DNA of 64,000 nt from Streptomyces spinosus (lineage in GTDB: Bacteria; Actinomycetota; Actinomycetes; Streptomycetales; Streptomycetaceae): assembly GCF_020400655.1 (NCBI RefSeq), contig NZ_JAINRC010000028.1, positions 1-64,000 of the forward strand. The letters are read 5' to 3'. The notes below the pieces were generated by a model. The model searched no databases. It worked only from the letters and a program-made list of their open reading frames with translations, and had not been told where the DNA came from. Of this stretch, positions 9,299 to 16,797 are shown one piece after another (the first letter of the stretch is position 1; the number at the start of each line of letters is the position of its first letter). Position numbers and translations under genes: made by a program.

Positions 9299-12200
9299 AT
9301 GAGAAACAGGCCGTGGCGGTCGGGACCGCCACGCGGAGGTAGCCGGCTGAGACGGACCGCGCTCGCGGTGGCCGCGGTGCTGGCGGCGGAAACCGCGTTG
9401 ATGTCGCTGGGCACGGGGGTCGGCTTCGCGACCGCTTCCGGTGCGGCGCGGACAGTCAAGGCGTCCGACGTCAAGTCGGCCGCCACGTCCGCGGACTCGG
9501 TGGCGTCGGCGCTGCTGACGGCGCGGACGCTCAACCGGAAGATCGAGGTGCTGTCGGAACGGACGGAGGATTCGACGACCTTCGCGCTACCGAGCGGCGA
9601 ACTGCGGACGGAGGCGTACGCCGGGCCGGTCCGGGTGAAGCAGGACGGCACGTGGAAGGACATCGACACCTCGCTGTCCGACGCCGGCCCCGACCTGGCA
9701 CCGGTCGCCGCGGCGGCGGACATCGCGGTGTCCGATGGCGGGGACAAGCAGCTCGCCTCGGTGGCCAAGGGCGACGAGACCTTCGGGCTGCGCTGGGAGA
9801 ACAACCTGCCGAGCCCGACCGTCAAGGACAACACCGCCTCCTACGACCTGGGCAGCGGACAGACCCTTTCGGTCACCGCGCTGGCGCAGGGCTTCTCGGA
9901 GGCCATCAAACTCACCCAGCGGCCGGGCGACGACACGGTCTCCTACCGGATTCCGCTCGACCTGGACGGCCTGAAGCTGTCCCAGGCCGCCTCCGGGCAC
10001 CTGCTGCTGAAGAACAGCGACGGCCACCTGGTGGCCGAGGCGCCCGCCCCGATGATGTGGGACGCCTCCAAGGACCCCGCATCCGGCGAGTCCGCGCACC
10101 AGCAGCAGGTCAAGACGGAGATCGAGACGGCCTCCGACGGCGCCCAGACCCTGGTGCTCACCCCGGACCAGGACTTCCTGGCCACGGCCACCTACCCGGT
10201 GACCGTGGATCCGACCACCACGCTGGCGGTCACCACCGACACCTGGGTGCAGAACCCCGACTACCCCGACTCCCAGATCTCCTCCCAGGAGCTGAAGTCG
10301 GGCACGTACGACGCGGGCACCGACGTGGCACGTTCGTATCTGAAGTTCGACGTCTCCCAGTTCACCGGCAAGCACATCACCGGTGCGACGATGTCGCTGT
10401 ACAACTACTACTCGGCGACCTGCTCCACCGCCGGGGCGGCCACCGTGGCGAAGCGGATCACCTCCGGCTGGTCGTCGTCCTCGATCACCTGGGGCGTACA
10501 GCCGTCCACCACGACCACGGGTATGTCCTCCAACACCGGTCACTGGGGCTACGACTCCAGTTGCCCGGCGAACTGGTCGCACTGGAACCTGCAGTCGATC
10601 GCGCAGTCGTGGGCCGACGGCGCCCCGAACTACGGTCTGCAGATCCGCGGCGACGACGAGAAGGACGCCACCACCTGGCGGCGCTTCCGCTCGGCGAACT
10701 ACACCACCCCCGGCTACGCGCCGAAGCTGACGGTGACCTACAACTCGTACCCGGCTGTGCCGAGTTCGCCGGTGATCTCGCCCTCCCAGGTCAACGCCTA
10801 CAGCGGAACCCGGTACGTCACCTCGCTCACGCCGACCCTGTCGGCGAAGACGACCGACCCGGACGGGGCCACCACCAAGGGACAGTTCGAGGTGACCGCG
10901 GACCCGGCGTACGCGGACACCACCTACTCCTACACCGGCACCTCCGCCTCGGTGGCCTCCGGTTCCACGGCCCAGCTGACCATCCCGTCCGCCTCCGCCC
11001 TGCCGGCGGGCAAGCACCTGCGCTACCGCGTGCGGGCCTATGACGGCACCGACTACGGCCCCTGGTCCGGCTACACCACGTTCACGCTGAACACGGACGC
11101 GCCCGCGGCGCCGGCCGTCAGCTGTGACACGTACGAGGAGAACGGCTGGAACGCGAAGGCGGCCGACGCGGTCTCGTGCACGCTCGACACCTCCTCGTCG
11201 GACGGCGCCGGCTACTCCTGGGGCCTGGACGACTCCTCGGCGCCGAACAAGAAGCAGGACACCACCGACGGCACCGGCGGTGACGCACAGACCGTCAGCA
11301 TCGCCCCGGCGAACGGCTGGCACACGCTGTACGCACGCACCGTCGACGCCGCCGGAAACCTCTCCGCCACCACCACGTACTCCTTCGGCGTCGGCGCGGA
11401 GGGCGCGGCGGTCATCGCCCCGAAGGACGGTGACACCACCGCGCGTCGGCTGACGCTGGCGGCCAGGGGCCTGACCAGCTACACCGGGGTGACCTGGGAG
11501 TACCGGCGCGGCGAGACGGACGGCTGGCACACCGTGCCCGTGGGCGACGTCACCGCGTCCGGCGACGCCGTGCCCGCCTGGCCGGTCGCCGTCAGCGACG
11601 GCAACGCCACCAAGCTGGTGTGGAACACCGTCGGATCGCTGGCCGAGGACGGTGTGATCCAGCTGCGGGCCGTGTTCACGGACGGCATCAGCACCGGCCA
11701 CTCGCAGACCGTCGCCGTCACCCTCGACCGTGACGCCGGTACCGCGCCGACCGCGGACGTCGGCCCTGGCACGGTCAACGAACTCACCGGTGACTACACC
11801 CTGTCGGCCACGGACGCCTCCGCCTTCGCCGCGGATGTGGAGCGCACGTACTCGTCGCGCGCCAACGACACGGACAAGGAGGGCCAGGCGGAGATCTTCG
11901 GCCCCGGCTGGACCTCCGCCATCGCCGCCGCGGGCAGCGACTACACGCAGATCCGCAGGACTTCCGCCACCTCGGTGGAACTCCTCGCGGCGGACGGCGG
12001 CACCATCGCCTTCACCGCGACCTCGGGTGGCGGCTGGCAGCCGGAGACCGGCGCCGAGGGCGTGACACTGAAGGGCACCCTGTCCGGCACGACGTTCACG
12101 CTGACCGACACGGACGCCGACACCACGGTGTTCACGAAGACGGCCTCCTCGCTCCCGACCTGGACCCTGTCCTCGTCGGCCACCGCCGTGTCCGACTCCA

Positions 12201-15200
12201 CCGTCACGACGGTCTCCGAGACCGACGACACGGGCAAGCTGGCCCGCCCGAAGTACGTGATCTCCCCGACCGCCGGAGTTCCGGCCGCCACCTGCCAGAG
12301 CGCCCCCGCGACGAAGGGCTGCCGGGTCCTGGAGTTCGTCTACGCGGACTCCACCACGGGCACCGACTCCGCCCCCGGCGACCACCGGGGTCAGGTCAAG
12401 GCGATCAGGCTGTGGGCCACCGACCCCGGTGCCTCCGCCGCCACGGCCGAGACCGTCGCCTCCTACGGCTACGACGCAGCCGGCCGGCTTCGCCAGGTGT
12501 GGGATCCGCGTATCACCCCCGCGCTGAAGACGCAGTACACGTACGACTCCAACGGCCGGGTCGCCACCCTCACCAAGCCCGGTGAGCTGCCCTGGACCTT
12601 CGCCTACGGCAAGGCCGGCTCCGCCCTGACCGCGGGCGCGGGCATGCTGTTGAGCGCCTCGCGGCCCGCGCTGGCCGAGGGCAGCGCGAACACCACCTCC
12701 GGTGAGGCGACCACGACCGTGGTGTACGACGTGCCGTTGTCCGGTACGGGCGCCCCGCACCAGACGGACGCCGGCACGGTTGCCACCTGGGGTCAGGACG
12801 AGGCACCGACCGACGCCACCGCGGTCTTCCCGGCCGACAGCGTCCCCGCCTCCAGCACCGGGAGCGACCTGACCGCCGGCGACTACACCCGCGCCACCGT
12901 CACCTACATCAACGCCGACGGCGAGCAGACCGACCTGGCGACGCCCGGCGGCGCCATGGCCGTCACCGGCCACGACGAGTACGGCCACGAAGTCACGAAC
13001 CTGACGGCCGCCAACCGGGCCCTCGCGCTCGGCACGGGCCAGGGAGCCGCCGAGAAGCTCTCCGCCCTCGGCCTGACCGACCTGCCGACCGCGGACCGGG
13101 CCCGCCGGCTCAGCACCGTCCGGGTGTACTCCGCCGACGGCGAGCGGCTGCTCGACGAGTACGGCCCGCTGCACCAGATCACCCTCGCGACCGAACTCAA
13201 GGGCACCGGCACGCTGGCCGCCGGCAGCGCGGTCCCGGCCCGGTCGCACACGTCGTACACCTACGACGAGAACCGGCCCGCCGACGCGGCGGTCTCGAAC
13301 CTGGTCACCACCACGGTGATCGGGGCCGCGGTCGCCGGATACGCCACGGACGGCGACACCACGACCGTCACCACCACTTATGACTGGTCGACCGGCCGGC
13401 AGAAGGCCACCCGGGGCGGTGCCACCGACGGCACCGTGACGTCGTACGACAGCGCCGGCCGGGTGGCTTCGACACGCACCGCCGGGTCGTCCGGCTCCGA
13501 CGCGGACACCCTGCTCTCCACCTACTACACCGCGGACGGCTCCGGCACCTGCGGCGCCCGCCCCGAATGGGCCGGACTCCTGTGCAGGACGGCGCCGGCG
13601 GCCGCCATCACGAACGGCGGCGGCAACCCCACCGAGGCGGTCACCACCGTCTACACCTACGACCGCTGGGGCCAGACGGCCACCAAGGCCGAGACCGCGA
13701 ACGGCGTGACCCGCACCACGACCATCACCGCGGACGACGCCGGCCGCGGTGTCAAAAGCGCCGTCTCCGGCGGCACCGGCACGCAGACCCCTGCGACCAC
13801 CATCGGCTACGACCCGCGCAACGGCCAGATCGCGACCCAGTCCACGGGCGGCCAGACCATCGCGTACACCTACGACGACCTGGGCCGGCTCCTGTCGTAC
13901 AACGACGGCGCGGGCAACACCGCCACCCGGGCCTACGACATCCTCGGCCGGACCGTCAGGACCACCGACTCGGCCCCCTCCACCGTGACGTACGCCTACG
14001 ACACGGCGGAGAACGTCAGGACGCTGACGGACTCGGTCGCGGGCACCTTCACCGGCACTTACGACGCCGACGGCTCCCTCCTGTCCGAAAGCCTGCCCGG
14101 CGGCTACAGCCTGGCCGTCAGCACCGACCCGGCGGGCAACCAGACCGGCCGTGAGTACACGACGTCCGACGGCACCCCCGTCGCCTCCGACACGGCCGAG
14201 TACTCCACGAGCGGGCAGCAGCTCGGTCACACCCAGACCGACGGCCCGAGCATCGACACCGCCTACACCTACGACGCCGCCGGGCGCCTCACCCAGGCCA
14301 CCGACACCACCGGCACCGGCTGCACCACCCGTTCCTACGGCTTCGACGCGAACAGCAACCGCGACTCGCTCAAGACCACGTCGGACGACTGCGACGACAG
14401 CACCGCCGACGCCACCACGACCACCTCGTCCCACAGTTACGACTCGGCTGACCGGCTGACCGACCCCGGCTACGCCTACGATGCCTTCGGGCGCACCACC
14501 ACCAGCGGCGGCACGGCCCTGTCGTACTACACCAACGACCTCGTCGCCTCGGAGACGGTGGGCTCCACGCGCACCGCGTGGAGCCTTGACGCCGCCTATC
14601 GGCTCGCCGTCCAGACCACCCAGACGAAGGACGCGAGCGGCACCTGGAGTGACACCGCGACCGTCACCAACCACTACGGCTGCGCCTGTGACAGCCCCAC
14701 CTGGAGCGCCTCCGGCAAGGCCATCAGCCGTGACGTCCGGGACCTGGAGGACGGTCTGGCGGCCACCACCTCGGCCGGCGGTGACGTCGTGCTGCAGTTC
14801 ACCGACGTGCACGGCGACGTCAGCGTCCGCCAGCCGCTGGACGCCGGAGCCGCCGCCGTCGTCCAGCACTTCGACGAGTACGGCAACTCACTGGACGCGA
14901 CCGCCGGCAGCACCTACGGATGGCTCGGCCGATACCAGCGGCCGGCCGACGCGCTCGGCAGCGTGATGCAGATGGGGGTCCGGCTCTACTCCCCGGCCAC
15001 CGGCCGGTTCCTGAGCACCGACCCGGTGTACGGCGGCAACTCCGACGCCTACACCTACCCCGGCGACCCGGTGAACGATCTCGATCTGACCGGACGCCTG
15101 CGCTTCTCCTGGCACTACTACGGTCTGCGCATCCGCTTCAACAAGCACGAGACAGCGCAGGCGGAGAGCTGGGCCGGGCTGAGCGGCAAGGCGGGCACCA

Positions 15201-15385
15201 TCGCCTCACTGCTGAAGATCGCCAAGGCCACGGCGCTCAACTACCTGTCCATCGACGCCTACTTCATCGAGAAGAAGGCGAAGTGGGCACAGAAGGTACA
15301 TCACTGCCTCGAACTTCAGTGGTGGTGGCTGTACCCGGGCTTCATTCCCTACACCTACTGGGGCAAGGCCAACGGCTGCAAGTAG
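9299..15385 (+). CDS. Secreted RHS/YD-repeat protein with DNRLRE domain and a short variable C-terminal tail (probable polymorphic toxin)
   Basis: The ATG at 9299, after GGAGGGGCG, gives 2028 residues; an upstream in-frame ATG at 9224 lacks a ribosome binding site. Residues 1-50 are a Tat- or Sec-like signal (RLRRTALAVAAVLAAETAL). A DNRLRE-type beta domain lies at about 300-480 (TWVQNPDYPDSQ, ARSYLKFDVSQF), followed by Fn3-like modules. RHS repeats run from about 820 (GTVNELTGDYTLSATDASAF) to 1880 with many YTYD/YGYDAAGRL units. The RHS-associated core at about 1880-1930 reads MGVRLYSPATGRFLSTDPV and ends with DPVNDLDLTG. The last 98 residues, beginning at about 15091, differ in character: aromatic and basic (HYYGLRIRFNKHET), an amphipathic helical middle, and an aromatic end with two Cys. 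In RHS proteins the shell encloses and releases such a C-terminal toxin. The tail family is not one I can name. A small membrane protein gene follows at 15459. Confidence 0.9.
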   Translation: MRNRPWRSGPPRGGSRLRRTALAVAAVLAAETALMSLGTGVGFATASGAARTVKASDVKSAATSADSVASALLTARTLNRKIEVLSERTEDSTTFALPSGELRTEAYAGPVRVKQDGTWKDIDTSLSDAGPDLAPVAAAADIAVSDGGDKQLASVAKGDETFGLRWENNLPSPTVKDNTASYDLGSGQTLSVTALAQGFSEAIKLTQRPGDDTVSYRIPLDLDGLKLSQAASGHLLLKNSDGHLVAEAPAPMMWDASKDPASGESAHQQQVKTEIETASDGAQTLVLTPDQDFLATATYPVTVDPTTTLAVTTDTWVQNPDYPDSQISSQELKSGTYDAGTDVARSYLKFDVSQFTGKHITGATMSLYNYYSATCSTAGAATVAKRITSGWSSSSITWGVQPSTTTTGMSSNTGHWGYDSSCPANWSHWNLQSIAQSWADGAPNYGLQIRGDDEKDATTWRRFRSANYTTPGYAPKLTVTYNSYPAVPSSPVISPSQVNAYSGTRYVTSLTPTLSAKTTDPDGATTKGQFEVTADPAYADTTYSYTGTSASVASGSTAQLTIPSASALPAGKHLRYRVRAYDGTDYGPWSGYTTFTLNTDAPAAPAVSCDTYEENGWNAKAADAVSCTLDTSSSDGAGYSWGLDDSSAPNKKQDTTDGTGGDAQTVSIAPANGWHTLYARTVDAAGNLSATTTYSFGVGAEGAAVIAPKDGDTTARRLTLAARGLTSYTGVTWEYRRGETDGWHTVPVGDVTASGDAVPAWPVAVSDGNATKLVWNTVGSLAEDGVIQLRAVFTDGISTGHSQTVAVTLDRDAGTAPTADVGPGTVNELTGDYTLSATDASAFAADVERTYSSRANDTDKEGQAEIFGPGWTSAIAAAGSDYTQIRRTSATSVELLAADGGTIAFTATSGGGWQPETGAEGVTLKGTLSGTTFTLTDTDADTTVFTKTASSLPTWTLSSSATAVSDSTVTTVSETDDTGKLARPKYVISPTAGVPAATCQSAPATKGCRVLEFVYADSTTGTDSAPGDHRGQVKAIRLWATDPGASAATAETVASYGYDAAGRLRQVWDPRITPALKTQYTYDSNGRVATLTKPGELPWTFAYGKAGSALTAGAGMLLSASRPALAEGSANTTSGEATTTVVYDVPLSGTGAPHQTDAGTVATWGQDEAPTDATAVFPADSVPASSTGSDLTAGDYTRATVTYINADGEQTDLATPGGAMAVTGHDEYGHEVTNLTAANRALALGTGQGAAEKLSALGLTDLPTADRARRLSTVRVYSADGERLLDEYGPLHQITLATELKGTGTLAAGSAVPARSHTSYTYDENRPADAAVSNLVTTTVIGAAVAGYATDGDTTTVTTTYDWSTGRQKATRGGATDGTVTSYDSAGRVASTRTAGSSGSDADTLLSTYYTADGSGTCGARPEWAGLLCRTAPAAAITNGGGNPTEAVTTVYTYDRWGQTATKAETANGVTRTTTITADDAGRGVKSAVSGGTGTQTPATTIGYDPRNGQIATQSTGGQTIAYTYDDLGRLLSYNDGAGNTATRAYDILGRTVRTTDSAPSTVTYAYDTAENVRTLTDSVAGTFTGTYDADGSLLSESLPGGYSLAVSTDPAGNQTGREYTTSDGTPVASDTAEYSTSGQQLGHTQTDGPSIDTAYTYDAAGRLTQATDTTGTGCTTRSYGFDANSNRDSLKTTSDDCDDSTADATTTTSSHSYDSADRLTDPGYAYDAFGRTTTSGGTALSYYTNDLVASETVGSTRTAWSLDAAYRLAVQTTQTKDASGTWSDTATVTNHYGCACDSPTWSASGKAISRDVRDLEDGLAATTSAGGDVVLQFTDVHGDVSVRQPLDAGAAAVVQHFDEYGNSLDATAGSTYGWLGRYQRPADALGSVMQMGVRLYSPATGRFLSTDPVYGGNSDAYTYPGDPVNDLDLTGRLRFSWHYYGLRIRFNKHETAQAESWAGLSGKAGTIASLLKIAKATALNYLSIDAYFIEKKAKWAQKVHHCLELQWWWLYPGFIPYTYWGKANGCK

Positions 15386-15458
15386 GCCGAACCGACAGCC
15401 GGCGGGTGGCGGCCGGGCACACACCCGGCCGCCACCCGCCCGTACGAGAGAGACAGTC

Positions 15459-15746
15459 GTGTTGATCGTCGAAGTACTGCAAGTCGTGCTGGTCATCGCC
15501 GTCCTGGTCCTGGCGACAGGCAGACAGACGCCGAACCCCCTCCTGCTCTGGACCGCCGTGGGCTTCGGAACGAGCCAGGTCATCACCGCGCTGGACGGGA
15601 ACCTGGCCGACACCTTCTTCCGGCTCTTCGTAGCCGTGTTCGCCACGCTCGTGATGGACAGATGGCGTACCGAGCATGCGGTCACCGCGTGGCTGGCGGG
15701 CCCCGCGGCTCTGCTCTCAGGACTGCTGATCGGCTGGGTGGCCTGA
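15459..15746 (+). CDS. Small hydrophobic membrane protein, candidate immunity protein for the RHS tail
   Basis: A 95-residue frame starts at the GTG at 15459, 73 nt after the RHS stop, with GAGAGAGAC upstream. Three to four hydrophobic segments are visible (residues 3-22, about 28-45, 52-68 and 74-94), separated by short loops such as DRWRTEH. I do not recognise a family. Its location directly behind the variable tail of an RHS protein is the standard position of an immunity gene. A multi-pass membrane protein fits immunity to a membrane-acting toxin. It could also be an unrelated small membrane protein. Confidence 0.65.
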   Translation: MLIVEVLQVVLVIAVLVLATGRQTPNPLLLWTAVGFGTSQVITALDGNLADTFFRLFVAVFATLVMDRWRTEHAVTAWLAGPAALLSGLLIGWVA

Positions 15747-15881: not shown

Positions 15882-16711
15882 TCAGGCGTCGAAACCGGTC
15901 AGCCGGGCCCGCTCCTCCCACGCGGCGACGTCCTCGCGGACCTGATCGAGGTGGGCGAGGACCGCGCTCACCCCGTCCTCGCCGAGCGGCAGCCGCAGTG
16001 GAGTGCGCTCGGCCTCCAGCGCGGCCAGGATGAGGGCGGCCGCCTTCGCGGGATCACCGGGCTGGGTGCCGTGGCCGCCGGCGACGAGGCCGCGGGTCTC
16101 GGCGACCTTGTCGTACGCACCGGTGTCGGAGCTGGCCCCGGCCCGTTCGCCCTCGAACAACGAGGTCCGGAAGGCCCCGGGCTCGACGACCAGCACCTTG
16201 ATGCCGTACTCGCGCACCTCGTCCGCGAGCGCCTCGGACAGGCCCTCCAGGGCGAACTTGGTCGCGCTGTAGGCGCCGAAGCCCGCGAACGACATCTGCC
16301 CGCCCATGCTGCTCATCTGCACGATCGCACCGCCGCGCCCTGCCGCATGTGTGGCAGCACCGCCCGCACCAGGGCGGCCGGACCGAAGAAGTGCAGGTCG
16401 AACAGGCCGCGCAGCTCGTCGTCGGTGGTCTCCTCGACGGCGCCGACGTGGGTGCGCCCCGCGTTGTTGACCAGCACGTCGATCCGCCCGTGCCGGCTCA
16501 CGACATCCCGCACGGCCTCCTCGGCCGAGGCCGGGTCGGTGACGTCGAGCCGGAGCGCCTCCACCTGGTCGGGGTGGGCGGCCACCAGGTCCTCCAGGGC
16601 CTGTGGACGCCGGGCCGCTCCGACCACCACGTCACCGCCGGCCACGGCCGCCTCGGTGATCGCCCGCCCGAACCCGCTGCTCGCCCCGGTCACCAGCCAC
16701 ACCTTGTTCAT
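15882..16711 (-). pseudogene. Short-chain dehydrogenase/reductase gene broken by a single-base frameshift
   Basis: The N-terminal half begins at the ATG at 16711 and shows the Rossmann motif TGASSGFG and LVNNAGRTHVG. Its frame breaks near 16340 (after LPHMRQ) and runs to a premature TGA near 16313. The C-terminal half continues in another frame from about 16335 to 15882 with QMSSMGGQMSFAGFGAYSATK, including the catalytic Ser and the YxxxK pair. The two halves join into a normal 276-residue classical SDR if one base is added at the junction (the total span is 830 nt). It is either a recent frameshift mutation or a sequencing error. The gene is divergent from the LysR gene at 16811, its likely regulator. 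Confidence 0.85.
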
Positions 16712-16797
16712 CAGCACTCCCCGCACCGTCGTCGTCCGCGTACCGGACACGAACAAGACTGCTGCGGCGCGCCGTTGCCAGTCCAAGACCCATGGTG

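What the first reader, a model, noticed from the sequence alone, without database searches (positions are those of the whole stretch)
15091..15746. RHS protein with a novel-looking C-terminal tail and a downstream membrane immunity candidate
Seen: after the RHS core motif (ending DPVNDLDLTG) the last 98 residues change to an aromatic, basic and amphipathic sequence with Cys in VHHCLEL and at the extreme C-terminus. A 95-residue multi-pass membrane protein gene follows by 73 nt. Known: RHS proteins deliver C-terminal toxins whose immunity gene is next door. Inferred: the tail may be a membrane-active, bacteriocin-like toxin; the small membrane protein would protect the producer.
Basis: partly seen in the sequence, partly recalled or inferred. 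Interest (0 to 1): 0.75.

Follow-up and report, generated by a model that had tools for sequence, protein, structure and literature searches.

The report
Streptomyces RHS toxin with membrane-protein immunity

Summary
A secreted RHS protein of about 2,030 residues (window 9299-15385) ends its conserved core at DLTG. It carries a 97-residue tail, then a 73-nt gap, then a 95-residue multi-helix membrane protein. The tail is variable, not part of the shell: a shell 68% identical over about 1,480 residues (G232) carries a colicin-E3-type RNase there instead, with a truncated orphan copy of this tail downstream. The tail belongs to a family with no match in Pfam, NCBIfam, PADLOC, PHROGs or PDB sequences ([F/L]-N-K-x-E-T, hydrophobic or amphipathic helices, KC[LIV]x[LV], terminal Cys). 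The same family ends other RHS proteins and short Sec-type secreted proteins with an unrelated N-terminus. All 21 scorable members have a small TM-containing ORF within 150 nt downstream, against 2 of 18 RHS genes with other tails (13/13 against 2/18 after grouping relatives, p = 5e-7). Three later members also have one. Related tails carry related membrane proteins. Best reading: a polymorphic toxin/immunity pair of a new toxin family that acts at the target membrane. Toxicity, membrane action and protection are inferred, not shown.

The parts
9299..15385 (+). Secreted RHS/YD-repeat delivery protein (WapA-like): basic signal-like N-terminus, DNRLRE domain (about residues 314-481 of P0003), RHS repeats, RHS-associated core (about 1860-1933), core end DLTG
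   Evidence: NCBIfam NF033679 2.1e-33, TIGR03696 2.6e-10; Pfam RHS_repeat 5.9e-9, CBM96 7.7e-13; ORF
15092..15385 (+). C-terminal toxin-candidate tail (97 aa) with FNKHET motif, amphipathic helices, Cys72 and Cys96; lower G+C (0.616) than the shell (0.713)
15386..15458 (+). Intergenic stem-loop (about 17 perfect GC-rich pairs, 6-nt loop) between toxin and immunity gene, followed by a purine-rich GAGAGAGA stretch (likely ribosome-binding region)
   Evidence: fold energy -46.7 against -27.9 for shuffles, z -5.55; kept in L002-L004 with two compensated pairs
15459..15746 (+). Candidate immunity gene: 95-aa multi-helix membrane protein
   Evidence: 72-76% identical homologues (best local alignments) in the same place in L002-L004; dN/dS about 0.4; four helices predicted; no known family

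Best explanation
It is a WapA-like secreted RHS polymorphic toxin. The shell carries the producer's interchangeable C-terminal toxin; the 97-residue tail is that toxin and belongs to an uncatalogued actinobacterial toxin-domain family. After export by the general secretory route and release from the shell, the small cationic, aromatic domain, probably held by a Cys72-Cys96 disulfide, most likely acts on the cell membrane of a neighbouring actinobacterium from outside, by inserting helices and depolarising it or by blocking a membrane target. The adjacent membrane protein protects the producer from within the same membrane. Shown: the domain boundary, tail exchange, orphan displacement, family membership, and consistent linkage to (and co-variation with) a small membrane protein. 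Inferred: toxicity, disulfide, membrane site of action, and protection.
For: Tail exchange: G232 has a shell 68% identical over residues 463-1935 but with a PF09000 Cytotoxic (colicin E3 type) tail, E 3.9e-12, followed by a small ORF in the immunity position and then an orphan RHS-core fragment carrying a truncated copy of this tail. A shell 69% identical over its last 79 residues (L017) has an unrelated tail. Linkage: three homologous loci in other Streptomyces carry tail plus membrane protein (L002 93/73%, L003 94/75%, L004 82/71%), with different genes downstream. Family: a profile of the window set plus small secreted members finds held-out RHS tails at 2.9e-8, 4.5e-6 and 2.1e-5, while the best of 1,000 shuffles scores 0.086 and no control tail scores better. 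A downstream small TM ORF occurs in 21/21 members against 2/18 control RHS tails, Fisher p 4e-9; grouped 13/13 against 2/18, p 5e-7. Later-found members L065, L066 and L067 also have one. Tail and immunity similarity are correlated, Mantel r 0.24-0.32, p 0.02-0.0004. Several members have outright TM segments in the toxin (L031, L053, L054).
Against: No experiment. The window tail has no segment hydrophobic enough to be called transmembrane, and its structure model is poor (pLDDT 49). A membrane immunity protein could also guard against a toxin that blocks a membrane enzyme, or could act as a sequestering or export factor. The four closest loci share orthologous shells, so among them alone linkage could be common descent. 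Some members are singletons with weak scores (L059; L066 broken).
Confidence: 0.68

Rival explanations
1. A toxin/immunity pair as above, but the tail does not make pores: it binds and blocks a specific membrane protein or cell-wall precursor (bacteriocin-like receptor or lipid II blocker), and the immunity protein shields or mimics that target.
For: The window tail is amphipathic and aromatic rather than transmembrane; predicted beta-hairpin, helices, beta order (low confidence); conserved polar FNKxET motif and Cys pair suggest a folded binding surface; immunity proteins are very diverse between subgroups.
Against: Several members have long hydrophobic segments that look like membrane hairpins (L053, L031).
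Confidence: 0.22
2. The tail acts in the cytoplasm as an enzyme, and the membrane protein protects by blocking entry of the toxin.
For: Many RHS and WapA tails are nucleases; the tail holds conserved polar residues (N17, K18, E20, T21).
Against: No match to any enzyme family; the conserved residues cluster in one short motif plus cysteines; control RHS tails rarely have a small membrane protein next door (2/18).
Confidence: 0.06
3. The pair is not a weapon: the tail is a secreted signal or adhesion module and the membrane protein is its receptor or anchor.
For: Small secreted forms exist with a signal-peptide-like N-terminus (L012-L014, L061-L065), and a membrane partner would fit a receptor.
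Against: Exchange with a colicin-E3-type tail on the same shell and the orphan remnant are marks of polymorphic toxins; distribution is sparse (2 of 392 genomes with the close tail, 15 of 199 with the family), with broken copies (L006, L008).
Confidence: 0.04

Closest known systems
WapA/WapI of Bacillus and Rhs/RhsI (PMC3967940)
   Same: Large secreted RHS-type shell, sequence-diverse C-terminal toxin after a conserved boundary, small downstream immunity gene, orphan toxin fragments downstream of a main gene
   Different: The tail matches no catalogued toxin family; the partner is an integral membrane protein
Tse5/Tsi5 of Pseudomonas aeruginosa (PMC10684867)
   Same: RHS shell delivering a C-terminal toxin that acts on the membrane
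   Different: T6SS delivery rather than Sec-type; 149-residue toxin fragment; no sequence similarity found in the PDB sequence search; the pore mechanism is shown for Tse5 and not here
Umbrella toxin UmbC2 4TM tox of Streptomyces coelicolor (PMC11062931)
   Same: Streptomyces secreted polymorphic toxin with a predicted membrane-acting C-terminal domain
   Different: ALF-repeat umbrella particle with lectins and a four-TM toxin; the window tail has no strong TM segment; sequences could not be compared here
Tox-WTIP of Zhang et al. 2012 (PMC3482391)
   Same: Small C-terminal domain of RHS-related proteins predicted to act as a membrane pore
   Different: Described there as restricted to proteobacteria, two TM helices with RxxR and W[ST]IP; the W[ST]IP signature is not in the window tail

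Membership tests
RHS/WapA polymorphic toxin | RHS/YD repeats and RHS-associated core in a secreted large protein | tested here: met
RHS/WapA polymorphic toxin | C-terminal domain that differs between related shells after a fixed boundary | tested here: met
RHS/WapA polymorphic toxin | Cognate small downstream gene that travels with the tail | tested here: met
RHS/WapA polymorphic toxin | Toxicity of the tail and specific neutralisation by the neighbour | not testable with these tools
   needs expression assays
RHS/WapA polymorphic toxin | Displaced orphan tails | tested here: met
   G232 orphan fragment with a truncated copy of this tail
Pore-forming RHS toxin (Tse5 type) | Sequence similarity to Tse5 or another solved toxin | tested here: not met
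   no PDB sequence match at E up to 10 with the four-sequence profile
Pore-forming RHS toxin (Tse5 type) | Forms pores or depolarises membranes | not testable with these tools
   only hydropathy available: 1.07 in the window tail, up to 2.8 in relatives
Catalogued toxin or bacteriocin families (Pfam, NCBIfam, PADLOC, PHROGs) | Match above the curated cut-off for the tail or the membrane protein | tested here: not met

The most novel reading that the evidence does not exclude
The tail defines a new, widely used actinobacterial toxin superfamily with a conserved FNKxET head and a two-Cys tail that attacks the membrane through a new mechanism, deployed both on giant RHS shells and on minimal Sec-secreted proteins, each subgroup with its own small membrane immunity protein.
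Probability: 0.45. Interest if true: 0.72.

Novelty: new member of a known kind. Interest (0 to 1): 0.55.

Why it matters
Streptomyces protein weapons were little known until the umbrella toxins. This gives a defined, testable family of small secreted toxin candidates, each with a ready-made immunity candidate, in the genus best known for small-molecule antibiotics. If membrane-active, it would add a Gram-positive counterpart to the pore-forming RHS toxins and a set of naturally paired toxin and protector proteins.

Tried and rejected
Homology of the small secreted members' N-terminus to the RHS N-terminus: none found, so these are two unrelated carriers. Plasmid and phage searches with the window tail: no credible match. 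Viral contigs: none. L007 (E 0.0018, a 21-residue match whose frame overlaps a rhomboid-like ORF on the same strand), L058 and L060 were rejected as chance: different proteins without the motif. L069 and L070, weak hits of the membrane-protein profile, lie in long unrelated ORFs. Fold search of the tail was not run because the model is too poor (pLDDT 49). Rfam on the intergenic hairpin: only matches far below the gathering score. No T-rich terminator and no sigma-70-like promoter were found.

Full report
What is there. The window lies in a 9.17-Mb Streptomyces-type genome (the closest loci are all Streptomyces). An ORF on the + strand ends at 15385. Its likely start is ATG 9299, followed by a basic, then hydrophobic, signal-like stretch. 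The protein has a DNRLRE domain (NF033679, 2.1e-33), RHS repeats and an RHS-associated core (TIGR03696, 2.6e-10). After ...DPVNDLDLT come the last 97 residues, starting at the G of DLTG. A 73-nt gap follows, then a 95-residue hydrophobic ORF at 15459-15746. The next recognisable gene is on the opposite strand, so this ORF is the only co-directional close neighbour.

The tail is a swappable module. Three loci in other Streptomyces carry the same tail (93, 94 and 82% identity), with shells 83, 86 and 77% identical over the 1,430 residues available and a homologue of the membrane protein (73, 75 and 71%) 72-74 nt downstream. The genes beyond the pair differ in each. The test of variability comes from G232. 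There, a shell 68% identical over residues 463-1935 ends in a different tail, a PF09000 Cytotoxic domain (colicin E3 type, E 3.9e-12), followed by a 101-aa ORF in the immunity position. Directly after it lies a fragment of an RHS core that runs into the first residues of the window tail (GRLKFPWHYYGLRIRFNKHA...) and is cut off. This is the arrangement of main gene, immunity gene and displaced orphan known from Rhs loci (PMC3967940). Among relatives, the last 79 shell residues recur (up to 69% identity, L017) with many unrelated tails.

The tail has a wider family. A four-sequence profile found a distant, frameshifted copy in G257, which was searched as its two pieces joined by an X. The resulting profile found small secreted proteins of about 300 residues (L012-L014) ending, for L012, in DPKWTWGIISGTVYFNKKETA...KCVEVKV...YSGGYCK. 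A profile of these sets (AB) then recognised, without having been trained on them, three tails taken from the independent RHS-shell survey: L031 2.9e-8, L030 4.5e-6 and L023 2.1e-5. The best of 1,000 shuffles was 0.086, and none of the other RHS tails in the same database ranked above it. The family alignment then found more RHS tails and small secreted proteins: 15 of 199 Streptomyces-genus genomes had a match at E up to 0.01, of which L058 and L060 look like chance. Four of 113 class-level genomes matched, including one with two copies in another genus. Five plasmid matches are annotated as hypothetical proteins; four were opened and examined. Common features are [F/L]-N-K-x-E-T near the start, a helical middle that ranges from amphipathic to clearly transmembrane, A-x-x-A...(G)KC[LIV]x[LV], and a Cys at or near the C-terminus. 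Exceptions exist: L031 lacks the last Cys, and L053 and L059 deviate in the motif. Nothing matches Pfam, NCBIfam, PADLOC, PHROGs or PDB sequences (PADLOC, PHROGs and PDB were searched with the window tail or its close set, PHROGs also with one small secreted member). The small secreted carriers have an N-terminal part with no detectable similarity to the RHS N-terminus, so the domain sits on at least two unrelated carriers.

The neighbour. With one fixed rule (ORF of 45-125 aa, start -30 to +150 nt from the toxin stop, at least one 19-residue window with hydropathy 1.6 or more), 21 of 21 scorable family members have such a neighbour, against 2 of 18 RHS genes with other tails (p 4e-9). Counting obvious relatives once gives 13 of 13 against 2 of 18 (p 5e-7). 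Requiring two such windows gives 13 of 21 against 1 of 18 (p 3e-4). The rule was set after several of these cases had been seen. Three members found afterwards (L065, L066, L067) were therefore looked at as a fresh check, and all three have one. The membrane proteins are mostly unalignable between subgroups, yet related tails carry related ones (L030, L051 and L057; L052, L053 and L055; L012 and L014; L062-L064). Tail and neighbour similarity correlate (Mantel r 0.32, p 0.0004 with all 19; r 0.24, p 0.02 with 14 representatives). In the window group the membrane protein is under purifying selection (dN/dS 0.37-0.42) but evolves faster in amino acids than the tail.

How it probably works. Delivery: a Sec-type secreted RHS shell like WapA; this part follows from the family, and the locus was not searched in depth for an injection machine. 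Action: small cationic aromatic domain, Cys pair suited to the outside of the cell, membrane-embedded protector, and openly transmembrane versions in relatives. Together these point to the membrane of a neighbouring bacterium. Pore formation, as shown for Tse5 (PMC10684867), is one option; blocking a membrane target is the main rival. The structure model is too poor (pLDDT 49) to decide. I put toxin/immunity pairing at about 0.85-0.9 and membrane action given a toxin at about 0.75-0.8.

An extra feature. The gap between toxin and immunity gene holds a near-perfect 17-pair GC stem-loop (z -5.55), kept in the three homologous loci with two compensated pairs (L003 is weaker). Long hairpins also lie in the gaps of L031 and L055. 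It lacks a T-run. It could end or stabilise the long toxin mRNA so that the immunity gene is set separately; this is a guess.

Novelty. The system type is known. The toxin domain family appears unnamed in the libraries searched, and no paper found in the held library describes it; that library lacks most subscription journals. The UmbC2 4TM domain of Streptomyces (PMC11062931) could not be compared by sequence.

Noticed in passing
window 15386-15458: Near-perfect 17-pair GC stem-loop in the toxin-immunity gap, conserved in three homologous loci with two compensated pairs; similar long hairpins in the gaps of L031 and L055.
   Followed up: partly
window 15882-16714, - strand: A short-chain dehydrogenase-like gene appears split between two frames near 16313-16345, suggesting a frameshift in the gene or the assembly.
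   Followed up: no
L009 (G232:C1:1226000-1244000), - strand: RHS gene with colicin-E3-type tail and a small ORF in the immunity position, followed by an orphan RHS-core fragment carrying a truncated copy of the window tail, with transposase-like sequence beside it.
   Followed up: yes
L019 (G043) and L035 (G792): Two control RHS genes with unrelated tails also have a small TM ORF downstream; the L019 tail is glycine-rich and hydrophobic and may be a different membrane-acting toxin family.
   Followed up: no
L061-L064 (Streptomyces plasmids): Family members on large Streptomyces plasmids annotated as hypothetical proteins; in L062 and L063 the downstream small membrane ORF is not in the gene table.
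   Followed up: partly
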